Positions 20,133 to 28,503 of a stretch of DNA of 64,000 nt are shown here, piece by piece. Both the position numbers and the translations under genes were made by a program. This DNA comes from an uncultured Dehalococcoidia bacterium (GTDB lineage: Bacteria; Chloroflexota; Dehalococcoidia; Lucifugimonadales; UBA3495). The notes under the pieces are model-generated. The model did not search any database, was not told the DNA's origin, and saw only the letters and a list, made by a program, of their open reading frames with translations. Each line of letters starts with the position of its first letter. Position 1 is the first letter of the stretch. Location of the stretch: contig OY282494.1 of the NCBI GenBank assembly GCA_958296385.1, forward strand, positions 1,471,416 through 1,535,415. The letters are read 5' to 3'.

Positions 20133-20672
20133 TCATAGTATCAAGCCGATCAGCAACAGCACTGCCGCCACTGCCGCAACCGCTGCGATGCCCAGCAGCC
20201 CAAACAGCCCGCAGCCCCGGCGTTGAGCATCATCCGAGGCATGGCGGTTAGATTTGTCCAAGTGGAACGGTAGGGGTTCTGCTCCGGTTATTTCGTGGAA
20301 TCGTTCTGATTGGCGGTCGCGCAGTGATTTTAGCGCTGCTTCAAAGCGGGCGGCCTCGGCGCGGGTGGGCAGGGGGTAGGATGTCCAGATTAGTTCGGGG
20401 GCGCTGCCGGCTGTGGAATATACTGCGTCGGCGACGTGGGCGCCCAGTCTGGCCTGCACGTTGGCGGTGTGGCCTACGTAGTGGCCGTAGTCGGTTTCCA
20501 GTACATAGACGTAAAACTCGCTGCGGCCCAGCTCCGCATCCCGTTCATCCTGGCCGTCCAGCCGCTCCGGGTCGTGCCAGCTGCCCCGCTGCCGGCGCCG
20601 GTTGCAACGGTAGCAGCGGGTATAGCGGCCACGTATCCGCCGGCCGCAGTCCTGACAAGAGCCGAACCGCAT
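20133..20672 (-). CDS. Zinc-ribbon/GIY-YIG protein with a C-terminal membrane helix
   Basis: A 179-residue protein with three parts. Residues 6-24 hold two Cys pairs (CQDC and CYRC), a likely zinc ribbon. Residues about 52-130 form a GIY-YIG domain: FYVYVLETDYGHYVGHT, a following Arg (QARL) and a Glu in RFEAALKSL as candidate catalytic residues. The last 25 residues are a hydrophobic helix (LLGIAAVAAVAAVLLLIGLI). A membrane-tethered nuclease of this layout is unusual; many stand-alone GIY-YIG (YhbQ/UPF0213-like) proteins are cytosolic and poorly understood. Confidence 0.75.
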   Translation of the reverse strand: MRFGSCQDCGRRIRGRYTRCYRCNRRRQRGSWHDPERLDGQDERDAELGRSEFYVYVLETDYGHYVGHTANVQARLGAHVADAVYSTAGSAPELIWTSYPLPTRAEAARFEAALKSLRDRQSERFHEITGAEPLPFHLDKSNRHASDDAQRRGCGLFGLLGIAAVAAVAAVLLLIGLIL

Positions 20673-20679
20673 CGCCAGC

Positions 20680-21018
20680 CTACGCCCCCGGCACGATAGC
20701 GACGTGGATGCTGGGTACGCCGGCCTCTCCGCTCAGCGTGGCCAGGGCTTGTTCCGCTTCGGCGATGGGGAAGCTGTGGGTGTGGAGGCGGGCCAGGGGG
20801 TATTTGCGGGCGTGGATGGTGTCCACGGCGCGACGAAATGCCGGCATCCGCAACCGGATTGCGCCATAATGAGTGGTGATGGTACTGGCGTACCAATGAT
20901 GCCGGTGCATCGCCAACCCGCAGTCCGGGCAGAGCGGTTGGCAATCACCCAAAGCCTGCTGCAACCGGACGGGCATCTGCTGCTCCAACCGGGTTTCCAA
21001 ATCATAAAGCAGTCCCAT
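20680..21018 (-). pseudogene. Chimeric remnant: transposase N terminus joined to alcohol-dehydrogenase C terminus
   Basis: A 112-residue frame made of two unrelated halves. Residues 1 to about 63 (MGLLYDLETRLEQQMP onward, with CPDCGLAMHRHH and the TTHYGAIRLRMPAF strand) resemble the N terminus of ISKra4/UPF0236-like transposases. Residues from about 64 (AVDTIHARKYPLARLHTHSF to HVAIVP) match the end of zinc-type (MDR) alcohol/threonine dehydrogenases. The catalytic parts of both families are missing. GGGAGG lies ten bases before ATG 21018. It is most likely a deletion junction left after an insertion event; expression is uncertain. Confidence 0.7.
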
Positions 21019-21201
21019 AACAGCGCCCCTCCCACCGACGTCAGACCAGGCATTTACACCCATCCTACAACCAAACCACCTAAAACGAAACGCTGCCAAT
21101 CCCGGGCTGCGGATGACAGCGCGCCGGAAACGCAGTAAAATGCAGTAACGAACCGGATTGAAACGGCGTCCTTTCCGCAATCAAGCGCCAGGAGGAAAGC
21201 T

Positions 21202-21423
21202 ATGCCCATCAGAAAATACGTGGTAATGCGCTACCAGCGCGCTGAGATCGACCCGCGCACCAAGCAAATCAAACCCCGATTCGCATACAGCTCCGACCCC
21301 GACAAGCGCAAAGAAGAGTACAAGGAACACCCGGCCGATGGGCCGTTGCTCGAAGGCGCCATAGCCGGGATCTACCATCCCACCAAAGGCCGGCGCGATG
21401 CTGACGGTGAAGGCAGCTTATGA
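21202..21423 (+). CDS. Small basic hypothetical protein upstream of the FRG gene
   Basis: A 73-residue protein starting MPIRKYVVMRYQRAEIDPRT with AGGAGG seven bases before the ATG. It is charged, soluble and of no recognised family. The stop codon lies within a hairpin (21410-21417 pairing with 21427-21434) that has no T run, so it is a weak terminator or attenuator. The FRG-TPR gene begins 50 bases later on the same strand, and both are AT-richer than their neighbours. Confidence 0.6.
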   Translation: MPIRKYVVMRYQRAEIDPRTKQIKPRFAYSSDPDKRKEEYKEHPADGPLLEGAIAGIYHPTKGRRDADGEGSL

Positions 21424-21473
21424 TGGGCTGCCTTTACAAATTTCTCCCTTAGCCGAACAAGCAGGAATTTAAC

Positions 21474-22715
21474 GTGTCGGAACAAGATGTTCACCAGAGC
21501 GTCCAGGACTTGCTGCACGTCCTGACCGTCCCATCAGAACTCGCGTACATATATCGCGGGGAAAGCAGAGCAGATTACGGCGAGGTATCGTCTAACCTGT
21601 ATCGAGAATATAAAGATACCGTTACCATCAGCCACATCAGCATCGGCCAGATTGAGTTCTTTGAACTTGAAGCCGCCGCCAAGCATGATGCGTCTAACAT
21701 GGACGATGCGAGACTGCGCTCGCTGGTTCAGCACTATCACGGCAAGACCAATGCTATCGACTTCACGGGCGATATAAATGTCGCTCTGTTTTTTGCGTGC
21801 GATGGCGATTTTGATAAAGATGGCCGGGTCATACGACTCGACCCGCAATCTACCGTCTGCGAAATAACGGAGCCTGCCGAGCCGCAGCACCGAATTATCG
21901 TGCAGAAAAGCATCTTTGTGACGCCGCCTAATGGGTACGTCCCCTCTGGAGAATATCAGGATGCGACTGTCATTGTGCCGGCAAAACTGAAACTTCCCAT
22001 ACTGGCATACCTCCGACGCTACCATGGGATTTCCAGCAGGACAATCTACAACGACCTCCACGGCTTCGTTCACTATCGTGCCAACCATAAAGCTACTATC
22101 GAGATGAACTTCTCAGCGATTAACCGGGACGCATCGGGTGAATACCAAGAGGCTATTGAACTGCTTAACGAATCAATAGCACGCGACCCTGATGCCAGCG
22201 TCACGCACTTGCTTAAGGGGATGGTCAACCAAGGCGCCGGTCATATTCCGGAGGCTATCGAAAATTTCAACGCCGCTATCGCTCTCAATCCCAACAACGC
22301 CAATGCTTACAACTACCGGGGCATATGCCATTATTGGCAAGGCGACAACGACCAAGCACGCGCCGATTACAGCGAAACCTTAGCCATTAATCCAAATCAC
22401 AGCTCAGCCTTAACCAACCGTGGCCTACTCCGCCACGAGAACGGAAACCGGCGCGGCGCCATGCGCGATTACGACCGGGCGCTGCGCATAGACTCTACCC
22501 TGGTCATCGCACTTAACAATCGAGGATTACTCCATCTGGCAAGCGACGACCCAGATGCGGCCATCGCGGACTTGGATGCGGCTATCAGGCTACAGCCCCG
22601 TTGGGCACTCCCCTATCTGAATCGTGGTTACGCTTACCATGCCAAAGGGGATGCTGAGCAGGGGGATGCTGACATACGCCGGGCAATTGCTTTGGAGCCT
22701 GGTATAGAATTGTAG
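21474..22715 (+). CDS. FRG-domain protein with C-terminal TPR repeats
   Basis: A 413-residue soluble protein. Residues about 22-210 form an FRG domain: YRGE at 27-30, LVQHYHGKTNAIDFT at 84-98 with the invariant His and Asp, and then VALFFACDGDFDKDG. Residues about 220-413 contain roughly six tetratricopeptide repeats (for example AYNYRGICHYWQGD and ALNNRGLLHLASDD), a protein-interaction surface. The molecular role of FRG is not established here; the family occurs in accessory and phage-linked loci. It starts at GTG 21474. AT-richer sequence and the neighbouring chimeric remnant suggest acquisition by transfer. Confidence 0.8.
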   Translation: MSEQDVHQSVQDLLHVLTVPSELAYIYRGESRADYGEVSSNLYREYKDTVTISHISIGQIEFFELEAAAKHDASNMDDARLRSLVQHYHGKTNAIDFTGDINVALFFACDGDFDKDGRVIRLDPQSTVCEITEPAEPQHRIIVQKSIFVTPPNGYVPSGEYQDATVIVPAKLKLPILAYLRRYHGISSRTIYNDLHGFVHYRANHKATIEMNFSAINRDASGEYQEAIELLNESIARDPDASVTHLLKGMVNQGAGHIPEAIENFNAAIALNPNNANAYNYRGICHYWQGDNDQARADYSETLAINPNHSSALTNRGLLRHENGNRRGAMRDYDRALRIDSTLVIALNNRGLLHLASDDPDAAIADLDAAIRLQPRWALPYLNRGYAYHAKGDAEQGDADIRRAIALEPGIEL

Positions 22716-22750: not shown

Positions 22751-24715
22751 TTATTTTGGCGGTTGTTGGCCGAACCAATAGGCGCCGCTCCAAAGGTGGG
22801 CTTTGGCTGGATTGGGGGATATTTGTCCGGTTTTTAGCCAGAGGATGGGGTAGTTGGGCAGGTTTATTTGTGCGGTGCACTTGCCGTTGGAGTGGGTGCC
22901 GACATCCTGGAAGGTGAAGTCGTGGATGTCAAAGCCGTGCTGCCGACGCGGTTCCGGCAGGTCGTTCACGTTCACCGGGTGCAGATGCAGGAAGAAACCC
23001 GCCGCTGTGTCGGCCGGGGCGCAGGGTTCCTTGACGTAGAGCAGCCTGCCGTCGTTCAGACGCACCTCAAAATTACTCCGGATTAGCTGCGTTTCTCCGG
23101 CCGGCGCGCGCCGGTCGGTTATCAGCCAGAGGAATACGTGCTCGTGGCCGATGTGCGGTTGGACGGATAGTTGGGGGGCGGTGGATTCCCATTCTTGCCA
23201 AATCTGCTCTAATGGGGGACCGATTATCATCATTGCCCATAGCCGCCATTGGTCGTTTCCGGACTGTTGGAGGGGCTCTGCTATCTGGCGCAATTCGGCG
23301 ACGCAGGCGGGGAGGGGGTCCCAGAAACGGCATTGTCCATAGCGGTAGTTGTCCGGCGGGTTGGGGATGTAGAAATGCGCTACGCTGGCGGTCCAGGCGT
23401 CGATATAGACGGTGTCTGAGGGGACGGCTGCGGTGTCCAGGTAGGTTAAGATGCTTTGGAATTTGTGGTCGCGATCGGCGGCGTAGGCTTGCGGTATGAC
23501 GGGCAGGCTGGCGATGGCGATTCCGGCGGCGGACAGGGCCAGGGCGGTTGGGGCCAGCCAGCGGCGGCGGGTGACGTCGGACAGCAGGGCTGCGGTTGCG
23601 GTCAGCCCGATGGCGGCGGCCAGAAACAGTACCGGCCCCAGATACACGTTCTGCTGGGATGCGCCGTAGGGGTAGATGCCCAGCACGGCGGCAGCGCTGG
23701 CGATGGCCAGGCTGAGCGCGGCCAGCACGGGCAGGGGGCTGAACTGCCGCCGTATCACCAGCGTCGTCACCATCACGGCCAGCGCGACGAGGGCGGCGAC
23801 GGCTGCCGGCGGCGGTATATGGTAGGCCAGTAGTTCCCAGGTGCGGGTTGCGCTGAAACTGACGATGGCCAACGGGTCGTCAAGCCCGCCCTGGTAGTAA
23901 TAGTGGGCCAGGTAACCGTCGGGGCCGGACCAGGCGCGGGCGCCCTCTTGCCACTGGTAACGGGCGGTGGTGAACAGGCTGATGAGGCAGCCCGTCGCAA
24001 AGCAGCCGGCCGGCCAGAGCAGATTCAGCCGGGCCCGGGCCCAAGCGTCAATCCGGATGAGGCCGCGTCCGTTGCTGCGCTCCGGGCCGGGGCCGGATGG
24101 GGTGGTGATTAGGGCGGTGAGCAGGACGGCGATGCTGAACAGGGCCAGGCCGTATTGCAGCAGGGGGGCTAACAGCAGGGCGGCGCACAGCAGGAGCGGT
24201 TTGCCGTTTTGCAGGTAGCGGAGCAGGCCGGCGATTAGCAGTACGGCAAGCAGGGCGTCAACGGCATACTCGCGCGCGTCCTGGGCGTGCCAGATGGCGG
24301 GCAGCGACAGGGCGGCCAGCAGTCCGGCCAGCAGCGCGGCGGGGCGGCTTACGCTTGCCCGGTCAGACTTCTCTCTCCCCCCCCCCCCGACTTTGGGCAG
24401 CGCAATCAACGCCGCCACCGTCAGCACGCTGGCCAGGGCGGGGATGATGCGGATGGTGAACGGGGTGCTGGCGATTTTCTGAATGACCCACAGGGCCAGC
24501 GGGTATAGAATCGGCGCGGTGTTGTTCGCGCGGGTTTGCTCCTGAACCACCGCGAATTCCGCGCGGGAGTTCAGAGCGGCCAGGGCTTCGTCGTGCGTCA
24601 CCGAATGTTCGGTGATGTTGTAGAACCGGAGTACGGCGGCCAGCAGGACTAGCAGCAGGCCGGCGGCAATCCACAGGGTGGCGCCGTTCCGCAGGGGGAA
24701 CCGGGGGATGCTCAT
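22751..24715 (-). CDS. Integral membrane glycosyltransferase (GT39/PMT_2-like)
   Basis: A 654-residue polytopic protein. It opens with a membrane helix and the acidic loop TEHSVTHDEALAAL, matching the catalytic first-loop signature of PMT/ArnT-like lipid-phosphate-sugar transferases, followed by about ten more hydrophobic segments and a C-terminal soluble domain. It probably transfers a polyprenyl-linked sugar at the membrane; donor and acceptor are unknown. Codons for VGGGGR near residues 108-113 are a run of 12 G on the coding strand (24377-24388), so length slippage there would shift the frame. Confidence 0.8.
   Translation of the reverse strand: MSIPRFPLRNGATLWIAAGLLLVLLAAVLRFYNITEHSVTHDEALAALNSRAEFAVVQEQTRANNTAPILYPLALWVIQKIASTPFTIRIIPALASVLTVAALIALPKVGGGGREKSDRASVSRPAALLAGLLAALSLPAIWHAQDAREYAVDALLAVLLIAGLLRYLQNGKPLLLCAALLLAPLLQYGLALFSIAVLLTALITTPSGPGPERSNGRGLIRIDAWARARLNLLWPAGCFATGCLISLFTTARYQWQEGARAWSGPDGYLAHYYYQGGLDDPLAIVSFSATRTWELLAYHIPPPAAVAALVALAVMVTTLVIRRQFSPLPVLAALSLAIASAAAVLGIYPYGASQQNVYLGPVLFLAAAIGLTATAALLSDVTRRRWLAPTALALSAAGIAIASLPVIPQAYAADRDHKFQSILTYLDTAAVPSDTVYIDAWTASVAHFYIPNPPDNYRYGQCRFWDPLPACVAELRQIAEPLQQSGNDQWRLWAMMIIGPPLEQIWQEWESTAPQLSVQPHIGHEHVFLWLITDRRAPAGETQLIRSNFEVRLNDGRLLYVKEPCAPADTAAGFFLHLHPVNVNDLPEPRRQHGFDIHDFTFQDVGTHSNGKCTAQINLPNYPILWLKTGQISPNPAKAHLWSGAYWFGQQPPK
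24377..24388. repeat. 12-base homopolymer in a glycosyltransferase gene
   Basis: An uninterrupted run of twelve C on the + strand (G on the coding strand) within the coding region, followed by alternating CT (24371-24376). Such tracts are prone to slipped-strand mispairing; an assembly error is the main alternative. Confidence 0.85.
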
Positions 24716-24751
24716 TCCGGACTAGTCGGGACTGGGTTAGTTGGCGCCGGG

Positions 24752-26680
24752 CTAGTCGGCGGCGGCGGGGGACAGGCCGTCGGCGCCGATTACTTCGCCG
24801 CCGGTGGGGGCTACGTCGATGCTGGGGCCGGAGAGGCCGTAGTTGATGGCGTAGAGCTGGGCGTACACGCCGCCGGATTCGAGCAGTTCGTCGTGGGTGC
24901 CTACTTCGGCTACTTCGCCCCGGTTCAGCACTACGATTTTGTCGGCGTTGCGGATGGTGGACAGGCGGTGGGCGATTACTATGGAGGTGCGGCCATCCAG
25001 GATGCGGCGCAGCGCCTGCTGGATGAGCAGTTCGGTGTGGGTGTCAATGTTGGCGGTGGCCTCGTCCAGCACGAGGATGCGGGGGTTGCCGACGATGGCG
25101 CGGGCAAAGCTGATGAGCTGGCGCTGGCCGATGCTCAAGTTGACGCCGCGCTCGGCAAGTTCGGCATCGTAGGCGCCGTTTAGTTCGCTGATGAAATCGT
25201 GGGCGCCGACGGCGCGGGCGGCGGCTTCGACTTCGGCGTGGGTGGCGGTTTCGTTCAGATAGCTGATGTTCTCGCGGACGGTGCCGGAGAATAGATAGGG
25301 TTCCTGCAAGACCATGCTCATCTGGTGAACCAGCGATTCCCGCTTGACGTCGCGCAGGTCGTGTCCGTCAACTTCAATGGCGCCGTCGGTTACGTCGGCG
25401 GAGCGGTGCAGCAGGTTGACCAGCGTGCTTTTGCCGGCGCCGGTGGAACCGACCAGGGCCACGTTCTCGCCGGCCTTGATGTGGAGGTTGACGTTCTTAA
25501 GGACGTCAATGCCCTCAACGTAATGGAAGTTGACGCTGCGATAGCGGATGTCGCCCTGCACCTGGGGCAGGGTTACGGCGTCGGGCTTGTCAACGATGTC
25601 GGGTTCCAGGTCGAGCACCTCAAAGATGCGGACGCCGGCGGCCATGGCGCGCTGGAGCTGGCTGTACTGCATGGTCAACTGGCGGATGGGCTCAAAGAAC
25701 CGCTGAATCCAAAAGGCAAAGGCAACCAGCGTGCCGACTTCCAGGCTGCCGCGCTGCAAGAGGAAACCGCCGAAAATCACTACGCCCAAGCCGATGCCGA
25801 GGCCAATCAGCAGCTCGACGACGGGTTGCAGCATCCCGGAGTAACGGGCGGCTTCCAGGTTGGCGTCGAGGTATTCGCTGTTGAGGCCGCGGAAGTGGGC
25901 CAGGTTCTCGTCCTGCCGGTTGAGGCTCTGGACGACGCGGACGCCGGTTATGTTCTGGTTGTACTCGCCGTTGACCATGGCGATGGCGCGGCGGATGCGC
26001 ATGAAGGAATGGCGGGCGAAACGCTGCCAGTACATCATGATGACCGTTAGCACGGGGACGACGAACATACAGACCAGGGCCAGCTGCCAGTCCACCAGCA
26101 GCATCAGGGCGATGATGGCGCCGACGGTTACCAGTTCGGCCAGGGCCAGGGCCAGCAGCTCAAAGGTTTCCTGCAATTGCAGGATGTCGGACTGCATCCG
26201 GGACATGATGCGCCCGATGGGGGTGCGGTGGTAAAAGGCGTTGGACTGGTTTTGCAGGTGGCTGAACATCCCGGAACGCAGGTCGTAGAGGATGTGCTGG
26301 CCGGTGCGGGAGATAAAGATGAATTGCAGGCGGTTGGACAGGAAGTGAATGGCGGTAACGAGCATGAACCCGGCGCCAATGATATGGATGCGATTGACGC
26401 TGCCATCGGCGATGGCCCAGTCGATGCCGAACTTGATGAGCAGGGGGATGGTGGCGTTCATCGCCGCGTAGAGCAGCAGGGAAACCAGCGCAATCAGGGC
26501 GAAAGTGCGGTAGGGCTTGATGTAGCCCATAAAGCGGGTGACAACCTTGTTGTCGTACACGCGGCCAACGACGTCCTCATCGGTAAGGCTGTCGTTGGAG
26601 GGGGCAAACATACTGTCGGCGGAGGTGCCGCGCATCCCCCGCATCATGCCGCCGCCGATACCGCCGCCGCCGCGCATCAT
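24752..26680 (-). CDS. ABC exporter half-transporter, second subunit
   Basis: A 642-residue half-transporter with a Gly/Met-rich tail at the N terminus, six membrane helices (about 55-350) and a nucleotide-binding domain. Walker A is GSTGAGKST, Walker B ILVLDEATANID with the catalytic Glu, and the signature is LSIGQRQ in place of LSGGQ. It overlaps the upstream exporter gene by four bases (ATGA). The two are probably a heterodimer with one canonical and one degenerate ATP site. The cargo is unknown; multidrug or lipid export is typical. Confidence 0.9.
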   Translation of the reverse strand: MMRGGGGIGGGMMRGMRGTSADSMFAPSNDSLTDEDVVGRVYDNKVVTRFMGYIKPYRTFALIALVSLLLYAAMNATIPLLIKFGIDWAIADGSVNRIHIIGAGFMLVTAIHFLSNRLQFIFISRTGQHILYDLRSGMFSHLQNQSNAFYHRTPIGRIMSRMQSDILQLQETFELLALALAELVTVGAIIALMLLVDWQLALVCMFVVPVLTVIMMYWQRFARHSFMRIRRAIAMVNGEYNQNITGVRVVQSLNRQDENLAHFRGLNSEYLDANLEAARYSGMLQPVVELLIGLGIGLGVVIFGGFLLQRGSLEVGTLVAFAFWIQRFFEPIRQLTMQYSQLQRAMAAGVRIFEVLDLEPDIVDKPDAVTLPQVQGDIRYRSVNFHYVEGIDVLKNVNLHIKAGENVALVGSTGAGKSTLVNLLHRSADVTDGAIEVDGHDLRDVKRESLVHQMSMVLQEPYLFSGTVRENISYLNETATHAEVEAAARAVGAHDFISELNGAYDAELAERGVNLSIGQRQLISFARAIVGNPRILVLDEATANIDTHTELLIQQALRRILDGRTSIVIAHRLSTIRNADKIVVLNRGEVAEVGTHDELLESGGVYAQLYAINYGLSGPSIDVAPTGGEVIGADGLSPAAAD

Positions 26681-28503
26681 GCTGTTGCTCTCCCGTCAAT
26701 CATCGCCGGCAAGGCCGCCTCCAGCAGGACTTCCTCCTGCGGGCGCAGCTGCAACTCGTAGATGCTGTGGTAAATGCCGCCTTTGCCAATCAGCTCGCTG
26801 TGGGTGCCTTCCTCGGCGATGAGACCCTTGTCCAGCACGAGAATCTGGTCGGCTTCGCGGACGGTGCTCAGGCGGTGGGCGATGACGAAAGTGGTGCGGC
26901 CTTTCATCACTTCAACCATCGCGCGGTGGATTTGGCGTTCGGTTTCCACGTCAACGCTGGAGGTGGAGTCGTCAAGAATCAGCACCGGAGGGTCAAGCAG
27001 GATGGTGCGGGCGATGGAAAGGCGCTGGCGCTGGCCGCCGGAAAGGGTGGTGCCGCGTTCGCCAACCCAGGTATCGTAGCCGCCGGGCAGGGACATAATC
27101 TGGTCGTGGAGCTGGGCGACGCGGGCGGCCCGCTCCACGTCGGCGGGCGTGGCGCCGGTGACGCCGTAAGCGATGTTGTCGCGGATGGAGGCGCTGAACA
27201 GGTACACGTCCTGATGCACGATGCCGACGTTATGGCGGAGGGATTGCAGGGTGAAATCGCGGATGTCGTCGCCGTCAATGGTAATCTTGCCCCGGGTAAC
27301 GTCGTAGAAACGGGGCAGCAGGTTGACGACGGTAGTCTTGCCGCTGCCGGGGGCGCCGAGGATGGCGGTTACCTGGCCGGGTCGGGCGTCCAGGTCAACC
27401 TTGCGCAGTGCGGGGGAACGGGCCTCGTAGGCAAAGCCGACGTTCTCAAAGCGCACGTGGCCGTTGGCGCGGCCCAGCGCGGCGGCGTTAGGCTTCTCCA
27501 CGACGGGGGACACGGTGTCCAGCACGTTGAACAGGCGCTGGCCGGAGGATATGGCGCGGGAGAAGGTGTTGATAATCTGCGCCGAGGCACGGATGGGGAA
27601 GGTGAGCTGATTGAGGAACAGGAAGAACATGGCCAGTTCGCCGGGGGCCAGGCGCCCCTCAATGACCAGCCAGCCGCCGAGCCAGAGAATCAGGCCGAGG
27701 GCAAAGGTAAAGTACAGGGTCATCCACGAGCTGTTGGTGCCCTGCATCCGCTCGGCGTCGTAATACTCAACGCGCAGCTCCTCGGCCTTGCGGTTGTACT
27801 TGCGGCGTTCGTAGTTCTCGGAGGCGAAAGCCTTGACGACGTGGATGCCGGCCAGGTTCTCTTGCAGGACGGTAACCGACTCGCCCATGACTTCCTGAAC
27901 GTGGAGCCACTTGCGGCGCAGGGCGCGCATTACGAAGGTGGAGCGCAGGATGATGGCCGGCACGAAAATCATGCTGACCAGGGCGAGCTGCCAGTTGACG
28001 AGGAACAGGATGACGGGGATGGCCAGGATGCGCACTACGACGTCGAGGGAGCGAATCATGCCGAGGTTGACGAACCGGCGCATGGCCTCAACGTCGGCGG
28101 TGGCCCGGGACATCAAATCGCCGGTGTGTTCCTTATCATGGAAGGCAAAGCTGACGTTCTGCAACTTGTCGTAAAGCAGGTTGCGGCAGTCAAAGGAAAC
28201 CTTTTGGGACAGGGATTCGGTGGTATAAGTACGCCCAAAATCGCAGAAACCGCGCCCCAGGCTGACGGCCAGAATCCCGATGCCGAGGAACAGGACGGAA
28301 TCAAAGGACAGGCCAAAGGCGAGGTCAAAATCCCGGATTGACAGCCCATTGTCGTCGTGCACGACCATGGTATCGATGGCGCGCCCGAAAAGCTGGGGCA
28401 AGGCCAGCGAGAAGCCGATGGCGGCCAGCGCGGTAGCGTAAGCGAGGGTAAGCCGCACCGGGTAACGGCCAGCCATGCCGATGATGCGCCAAAGCTCAGC
28501 CAT
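26677..28503 (-). CDS. ABC exporter half-transporter, first subunit
   Basis: A 608-residue half-transporter: six membrane helices (about 15-320) and a nucleotide-binding domain with Walker A GAPGSGKTT, a canonical LSGGQRQ signature and Walker B VLILDDSTSSVD. Asp replaces the catalytic Glu, as in the inactive site of heterodimeric exporters such as TM287/288. Paired with the downstream subunit, whose signature motif is altered, the degenerate residues fall in the same composite site. The promoter is not clear; no good ribosome site is seen before ATG 28503. Confidence 0.9.
   Translation of the reverse strand: MAELWRIIGMAGRYPVRLTLAYATALAAIGFSLALPQLFGRAIDTMVVHDDNGLSIRDFDLAFGLSFDSVLFLGIGILAVSLGRGFCDFGRTYTTESLSQKVSFDCRNLLYDKLQNVSFAFHDKEHTGDLMSRATADVEAMRRFVNLGMIRSLDVVVRILAIPVILFLVNWQLALVSMIFVPAIILRSTFVMRALRRKWLHVQEVMGESVTVLQENLAGIHVVKAFASENYERRKYNRKAEELRVEYYDAERMQGTNSSWMTLYFTFALGLILWLGGWLVIEGRLAPGELAMFFLFLNQLTFPIRASAQIINTFSRAISSGQRLFNVLDTVSPVVEKPNAAALGRANGHVRFENVGFAYEARSPALRKVDLDARPGQVTAILGAPGSGKTTVVNLLPRFYDVTRGKITIDGDDIRDFTLQSLRHNVGIVHQDVYLFSASIRDNIAYGVTGATPADVERAARVAQLHDQIMSLPGGYDTWVGERGTTLSGGQRQRLSIARTILLDPPVLILDDSTSSVDVETERQIHRAMVEVMKGRTTFVIAHRLSTVREADQILVLDKGLIAEEGTHSELIGKGGIYHSIYELQLRPQEEVLLEAALPAMIDGRATA

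What the first reader, a model, noticed from the sequence alone, without database searches (positions are those of the whole stretch)
21202..22715. AT-richer island with a small basic protein and an FRG-TPR protein: candidate toxin or defence unit
FRG with a TPR array, preceded 50 bases away by a 73-residue protein, resembles two-gene effector/partner layouts. The base composition differs from the flanks and the site is next to mobile remnants. The short gene could be a partner or inhibitor.
Basis: inference. Interest (0 to 1): 0.62.

Follow-up and report, generated by a model that had tools for sequence, protein, structure and literature searches.

The report
Solitary FRG-TPR gene, probable phage-defence effector
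A sponge-symbiont-type bacterium carries, at a spot where gene order breaks, an NAD-enzyme-like protein with a TPR protein-binding tail whose relatives repeatedly sit right behind DNA-restriction genes, so it is probably an anti-virus effector; the little gene in front of it is not a conserved partner.

Summary
In detail: 21202-21423 encodes 73 aa and 21474-22715 encodes a 413-aa FRG + TPR protein, 50 bp apart, in a stretch of 53.9% GC against 63.7% for the window. The FRG-TPR gene is real, intact at all invariant FRG positions, and folds confidently as an FRG domain plus TPR superhelix.

The interpretation splits. The defence part is strengthened: FRG homologues in GTDB (79 loci, mostly Poribacteria plus Chloroflexota, Nitrospirota and Entotheonella) lie downstream of an Eco57I-type methylase gene of one restriction cassette in 19 cases, always on the same strand. 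The 'two-gene toxin/partner' part is not supported: the 73-aa gene has no detectable homologue in 393 class genomes, GTDB, plasmids, phages or viral contigs, and most FRG homologues lack any small gene.

Two relatives and the genome's own paralogue do have a ~70-aa gene 17-85 bp upstream, but it is a different family: a minimal, partly degenerate GIY-YIG-like protein that also occurs without FRG. The window's small gene shows only twilight resemblance to it.

Best reading: a stand-alone member of a known candidate defence family (PADLOC PDC-S15; ART-superfamily Frg), probably NAD-consuming. Chemistry and phage protection are inferred, not shown.

The parts
21474..22715 (+). FRG-TPR gene, 413 aa (GTG start): FRG domain residues 25-115 within an alpha/beta domain of about 1-204, then TPR superhelix about 206-407
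   Evidence: Pfam; PADLOC PDC-S15; AF2 model pLDDT 89.6, pTM 0.78; invariant FRG residues R28 G29 E30 R44 H87 D96 F97 A108 C109 R118 R140 Q144 across 56 homologues
21202..21423 (+). 73-aa small gene, no family, no homologue found; partner status unproven
   Evidence: good SD and codon score; no homologue; AF2 single sequence pLDDT 55, uninformative
21113..21141 (+). promoter-like site (ATGACA-17-TAAAAT) 60 nt upstream of the small gene; could serve both genes
   Evidence: pattern scan only, 2 sites found against 1.4 expected by chance
20680..21180 (-). ORF with partial ISKra4-transposase-like stretch, probable mobile-element remnant bordering the pair
   Evidence: NCBIfam NF033572 E 0.0021, far under cut-off; four similar partial matches elsewhere in the genome
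22751..23091 (-). 3' part of the 654-aa neighbouring gene; the edge of conserved synteny with G018 is at 23091
   Evidence: blastn, window 23091-28494 aligned at 81% to G018

Best explanation
The FRG-TPR protein is a stand-alone candidate anti-phage effector. The FRG domain (ART superfamily) is proposed to consume or transfer ADP-ribose from NAD+ when activated, stopping growth of the infected cell. The TPR superhelix is proposed to be the part that senses a trigger or docks on a partner. In related loci the same gene is the downstream, same-strand companion of a PLD/Snf2-helicase + Eco57I-type methylase cassette and would act as a back-up effector there; in the window it has no such cassette next to it. 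The 73-aa gene is a co-directional neighbour of unknown role, not a demonstrated antitoxin. Shown: gene structure, domain content, fold confidence, genomic association. Inferred: NAD chemistry, trigger, toxicity, phage protection.
For: FRG and TPR domains by Pfam; PADLOC PDC-S15 models match residues 7-204 (E 2.1e-15). 79 FRG loci from GTDB genomes: 19 have a homologue of the same Eco57I/TaqI_C-type methylase (Pfam), all 19 upstream and same strand (p 4e-12 against equal chance of the four placements), across Poribacteria, Chloroflexota, Nitrospirota and Entotheonella. In G016 and G018 the order is helicase (PADLOC HKD+Snf2), methylase, ~70-aa gene, FRG-TPR. The genome's third FRG gene (pentapeptide-FRG) also neighbours an Eco57I-like methylase, a PIN gene and a DNA methylase. 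Low GC and synteny break. Frg assigned to ART superfamily and proposed as antiviral NADase (PMC9503650, citing Burroughs and Aravind 2020).
Against: The window copy has no restriction cassette beside it and sits between ordinary chromosomal genes. Its FRG domain lies on a long branch (1.36 changes per column, median 0.14), so function may have drifted. The fold search was filled by TPR matches, so the ART fold of this domain was not tested here. I found no experiment on FRG-TPR in the papers searched. 60 of 79 loci show no such methylase within the DNA held.
Confidence: 0.52

Rival explanations
1. Toxin-antitoxin or effector-inhibitor pair: the 73-aa protein holds FRG-TPR inactive and is lost or titrated on infection.
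For: Same strand, 50-bp gap, good SD and codon use. Three related FRG-TPR genes have a 69-72-aa gene 17, 29 and 85 bp upstream, on two separate FRG lineages.
Against: The 73-aa protein has no homologue anywhere searched. The three upstream genes elsewhere are a different family, which also occurs without FRG. Most FRG homologues have no small gene.
Confidence: 0.15
2. Symbiosis factor: a TPR-bearing 'eukaryote-like repeat' protein that acts on the sponge host rather than on phage.
For: Homologues come mostly from lineages known as sponge symbionts (habitat from my own knowledge). Eukaryote-like repeat proteins are reported in sponge Chloroflexi (PMC6306507).
Against: No signal peptide is apparent at the N-terminus (by eye). 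FRG-only and pentapeptide-FRG versions exist alongside. The recurring neighbour is a restriction cassette. Sponge symbionts are also strongly enriched in restriction systems (PMC5649159), which can explain the taxonomic pattern.
Confidence: 0.15
3. Decayed or orphaned defence remnant: FRG-TPR was carried here without its cassette and is no longer functional.
For: Long branch; no cassette in the window; neighbouring mobile remnant.
Against: Open 413-aa frame, all invariant FRG residues kept, six TPR matches, normal codon score, confident fold.
Confidence: 0.15

Closest known systems
FRG domain (Pfam PF08867) / Frg clade of the ART superfamily (Burroughs and Aravind 2020, as cited in PMC9503650)
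   Same: FRG domain over the curated Pfam cut-off; conserved R-G-E, Q-H, D-F-T and Q-K-S motifs
   Different: Here fused to a long TPR array; the ART fold and NAD activity were not tested
PADLOC candidate single-gene defence family PDC-S15
   Same: Several PDC-S15 models match residues 7-204 (best E 2.1e-15)
   Different: PADLOC models reach only the FRG half; the TPR tail lies outside them
HKD+Snf2 helicase (PADLOC C3a139) with Eco57I-like methylase, related to type IIG restriction and DISARM DrmD/DrmMI
   Same: In 19 of 79 related loci FRG genes follow this methylase on the same strand
   Different: The cassette is absent next to the window gene
GIY-YIG superfamily (PF01541), as the minimal ~70-aa proteins upstream of three related FRG-TPR genes
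   Same: Short gene in the same position and size class as the window's 73-aa gene
   Different: Window protein is not detectably related (2.0 to 4.0 bits; 10 of 1000 shuffles score as high with the larger profile)

Membership tests
FRG domain protein (PF08867) | Pfam match over curated cut-off | tested here: met
   48.6 bits against 25
FRG domain protein (PF08867) | family-invariant residues present | tested here: met
   R28 G29 E30 R44 H87 D96 F97 Q144 and others invariant over 56 homologues including this one
ART superfamily (Frg clade) | split beta-sheet ART fold | tested here: inconclusive
   AF2 gives a confident alpha/beta N-terminal domain, but structure searches were filled by TPR matches
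ART superfamily (Frg clade) | NAD+ binding or hydrolysis | not testable with these tools
   needs an enzyme assay
PDC-S15 defence candidate | match to PADLOC models | tested here: met
   E 2.1e-15 and 7.1e-14
PDC-S15 defence candidate | protects against phage | not testable with these tools
   no assay possible; the one paper found that names PDC-S15 was not read
Two-gene toxin-antitoxin/effector-partner pair | small gene conserved next to the large gene | tested here: not met
   no homologue of the 73-aa protein; absent from other FRG loci
Two-gene toxin-antitoxin/effector-partner pair | large protein toxic without the small one | not testable with these tools
   needs expression test
Minimal GIY-YIG-like family (for the 73-aa protein) | profile match above chance | tested here: inconclusive
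   2.0 bits with 9-row profile, below many shuffles; 4.0 bits with 23 rows, 10 of 1000 shuffles as high; hhalign probability 1%
Restriction cassette accessory | adjacent methylase/helicase genes | tested here: not met
   none seen among the genes next to the pair; present for relatives

The most novel reading that the evidence does not exclude
FRG-TPR proteins are the dedicated back-up effector of a PLD/Snf2-helicase + Eco57I-methylase restriction system of sponge-symbiont lineages, with a small (often degenerate GIY-YIG-like) protein between methylase and effector as a trigger or brake; the window holds a detached effector whose small gene is a diverged or replaced version of that part.
Probability: 0.2. 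Interest if true: 0.6.

Novelty: new member of a known kind. Interest (0 to 1): 0.4.

Why it matters
FRG domains are widespread in bacteria but I found no tested function in the papers searched. A recurrent, oriented link between FRG-TPR and one restriction cassette across several phyla makes the domain's role directly testable: the cassette with and without FRG can be put into a laboratory strain and challenged with phage.

Tried and rejected
Homology of the 73-aa protein: four weak class-level hits proved to be wrong-frame matches over other genes, two of them over ribosomal-protein-like ORFs. Membership of the 73-aa protein in the minimal GIY-YIG family: suggestive stretch YSSDPDKRKEEYKEH only, not significant. 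Single-sequence AF2 of the 73-aa protein: pLDDT 55. PDB sequence search with the FRG profile: one chance-level hit. Phages and plasmids: no phage hit, one Streptomyces plasmid FRG protein at 37%. Viral contigs: none.

Full report
What is there. The small one (21202-21423, +) has an AGGAGG about seven bases before its ATG and codon use typical of the window's genes (6th of 147 short ORFs), so it is probably a real gene, although it has no family in Pfam, NCBIfam or PADLOC. The large one (21474-22715, +; GTG start with AGGAA upstream) has an FRG domain and a TPR array. GC is 53.9% over the pair against 63.7% for the window. So the pair sits at a breakpoint, which agrees with acquisition but does not prove it.

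The large protein. AlphaFold2 with 56 homologues gives pLDDT 89.6: an alpha/beta domain (1-204) followed by a regular TPR superhelix, the latter matching TPR structures with Z up to 26.8 (rmsd 1.8 over 207 residues). All positions invariant in the family are kept in the window copy. It branches alone and long within its family. PADLOC's candidate defence family PDC-S15 matches the FRG half. The literature places Frg in the ART superfamily and suggests a NADase-type antiviral effector (PMC9503650). I could not confirm the ART fold because the TPR part filled every structure search.

Relatives. The genome has three FRG genes: the window's, a paralogue 72 kb away (46% identity over most of the N-terminal half), and a pentapeptide-FRG gene. 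Among 250 genomes of the order, 12 have this FRG subfamily. A scan of GTDB genomes returned 79 loci, nearly all from Poribacteria, with some Dehalococcoidia and other Chloroflexota, Nitrospirota, Caldilineaceae and Entotheonella; these are lineages known to me as sponge associates, but only taxon and isolate names are in the titles.

Neighbourhood. In 19 of the 79 loci a homologue of one Eco57I/TaqI_C-type methylase lies near the FRG gene; in all 19 it is upstream on the same strand. If orientation and side were random this would have probability about 4e-12, though the loci are not fully independent. They come from Poribacteria, Chloroflexota, Nitrospirota and Entotheonella, so one recent event does not explain them. 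In G016 and G018 the order is PLD/Snf2 helicase (1077-1079 aa), methylase (1158-1216 aa), ~70-aa gene, FRG-TPR; in G016 a metallophosphoesterase effector-like gene (PADLOC PDC-S60) follows. The genome's third FRG gene is also beside methylases and a PIN gene. The window copy has none of these neighbours.

The small partner question. Three relatives (G016, G018 and the genome's own paralogue) carry a 69-72-aa gene 85, 29 and 17 bp upstream of FRG-TPR. These are homologous to each other and to a family whose profile matches in 35 of 250 order genomes at E<=1e-3 (the weakest of these are ordinary GIY-YIG proteins or wrong-frame matches). Outlying members match Pfam GIY-YIG, some over the cut-off, so I read the family as a minimal GIY-YIG-like domain; the members next to FRG have HRG or SRE in place of YIG. 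Most family members are not near FRG, and most FRG genes have no such neighbour. The window's 73-aa protein has a similar size and place, and a stretch (YSSDPDKRKEEYKEH) that looks like the family's TNDLxRREREH motif, but neither HMM nor hhalign supports homology. No homologue of it was found in 393 genomes of the class, GTDB contigs, plasmids, phages or viral contigs. It is an orphan gene, and calling it an antitoxin would be a guess.

Judgement. Defence effector, stand-alone: about 0.5. The evidence is genomic association plus family assignment; toxicity, NAD chemistry and phage protection are untested. The pair hypothesis is possible (0.15) but not supported by conservation.

Noticed in passing
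L032 6009-6218, L033 5679-5897, L034 6598-6813 (own-genome paralogue at G000:C1:1565.6k): A family of ~65-72-aa minimal GIY-YIG-like proteins, most of them below the Pfam cut-off, in up to 35 of 250 order genomes, sometimes next to toxin- or defence-like genes.
   Followed up: partly
19 loci among L115-L193: One PLD/Snf2 helicase + Eco57I-type methylase cassette recurrently carries an FRG gene downstream on the same strand across several phyla.
   Followed up: partly
L034 9633-9818 (G000:C1:1568.6k): Second, shortened minimal GIY-YIG copy (ends at a TAG) beside an ImmA/IrrE-type (CapP-like) peptidase gene, 3 kb from the FRG paralogue.
   Followed up: no
L038 4888-11001 (G000:C1:2049k): Pentapeptide-repeat + FRG gene beside a PIN gene, an Eco57I-like methylase and an N6/N4 DNA methylase.
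   Followed up: partly
window 20133-20672 (-): GIY-YIG domain gene (179 aa, E 2.2e-05, just over the Pfam cut-off) one gene away from the FRG pair; it does not match the minimal GIY-YIG profile.
   Followed up: no
L108 1294-2823 and 2848 onward; L121 (OY282371.1): Two FRG genes in tandem, 24 bp apart.
   Followed up: no
window 22751-24715 (-): 654-aa neighbouring gene without any Pfam match belongs to a large paralogous family (36 matches in this genome, 34 in G018, none in the 12 other genomes of the genus searched).
   Followed up: no
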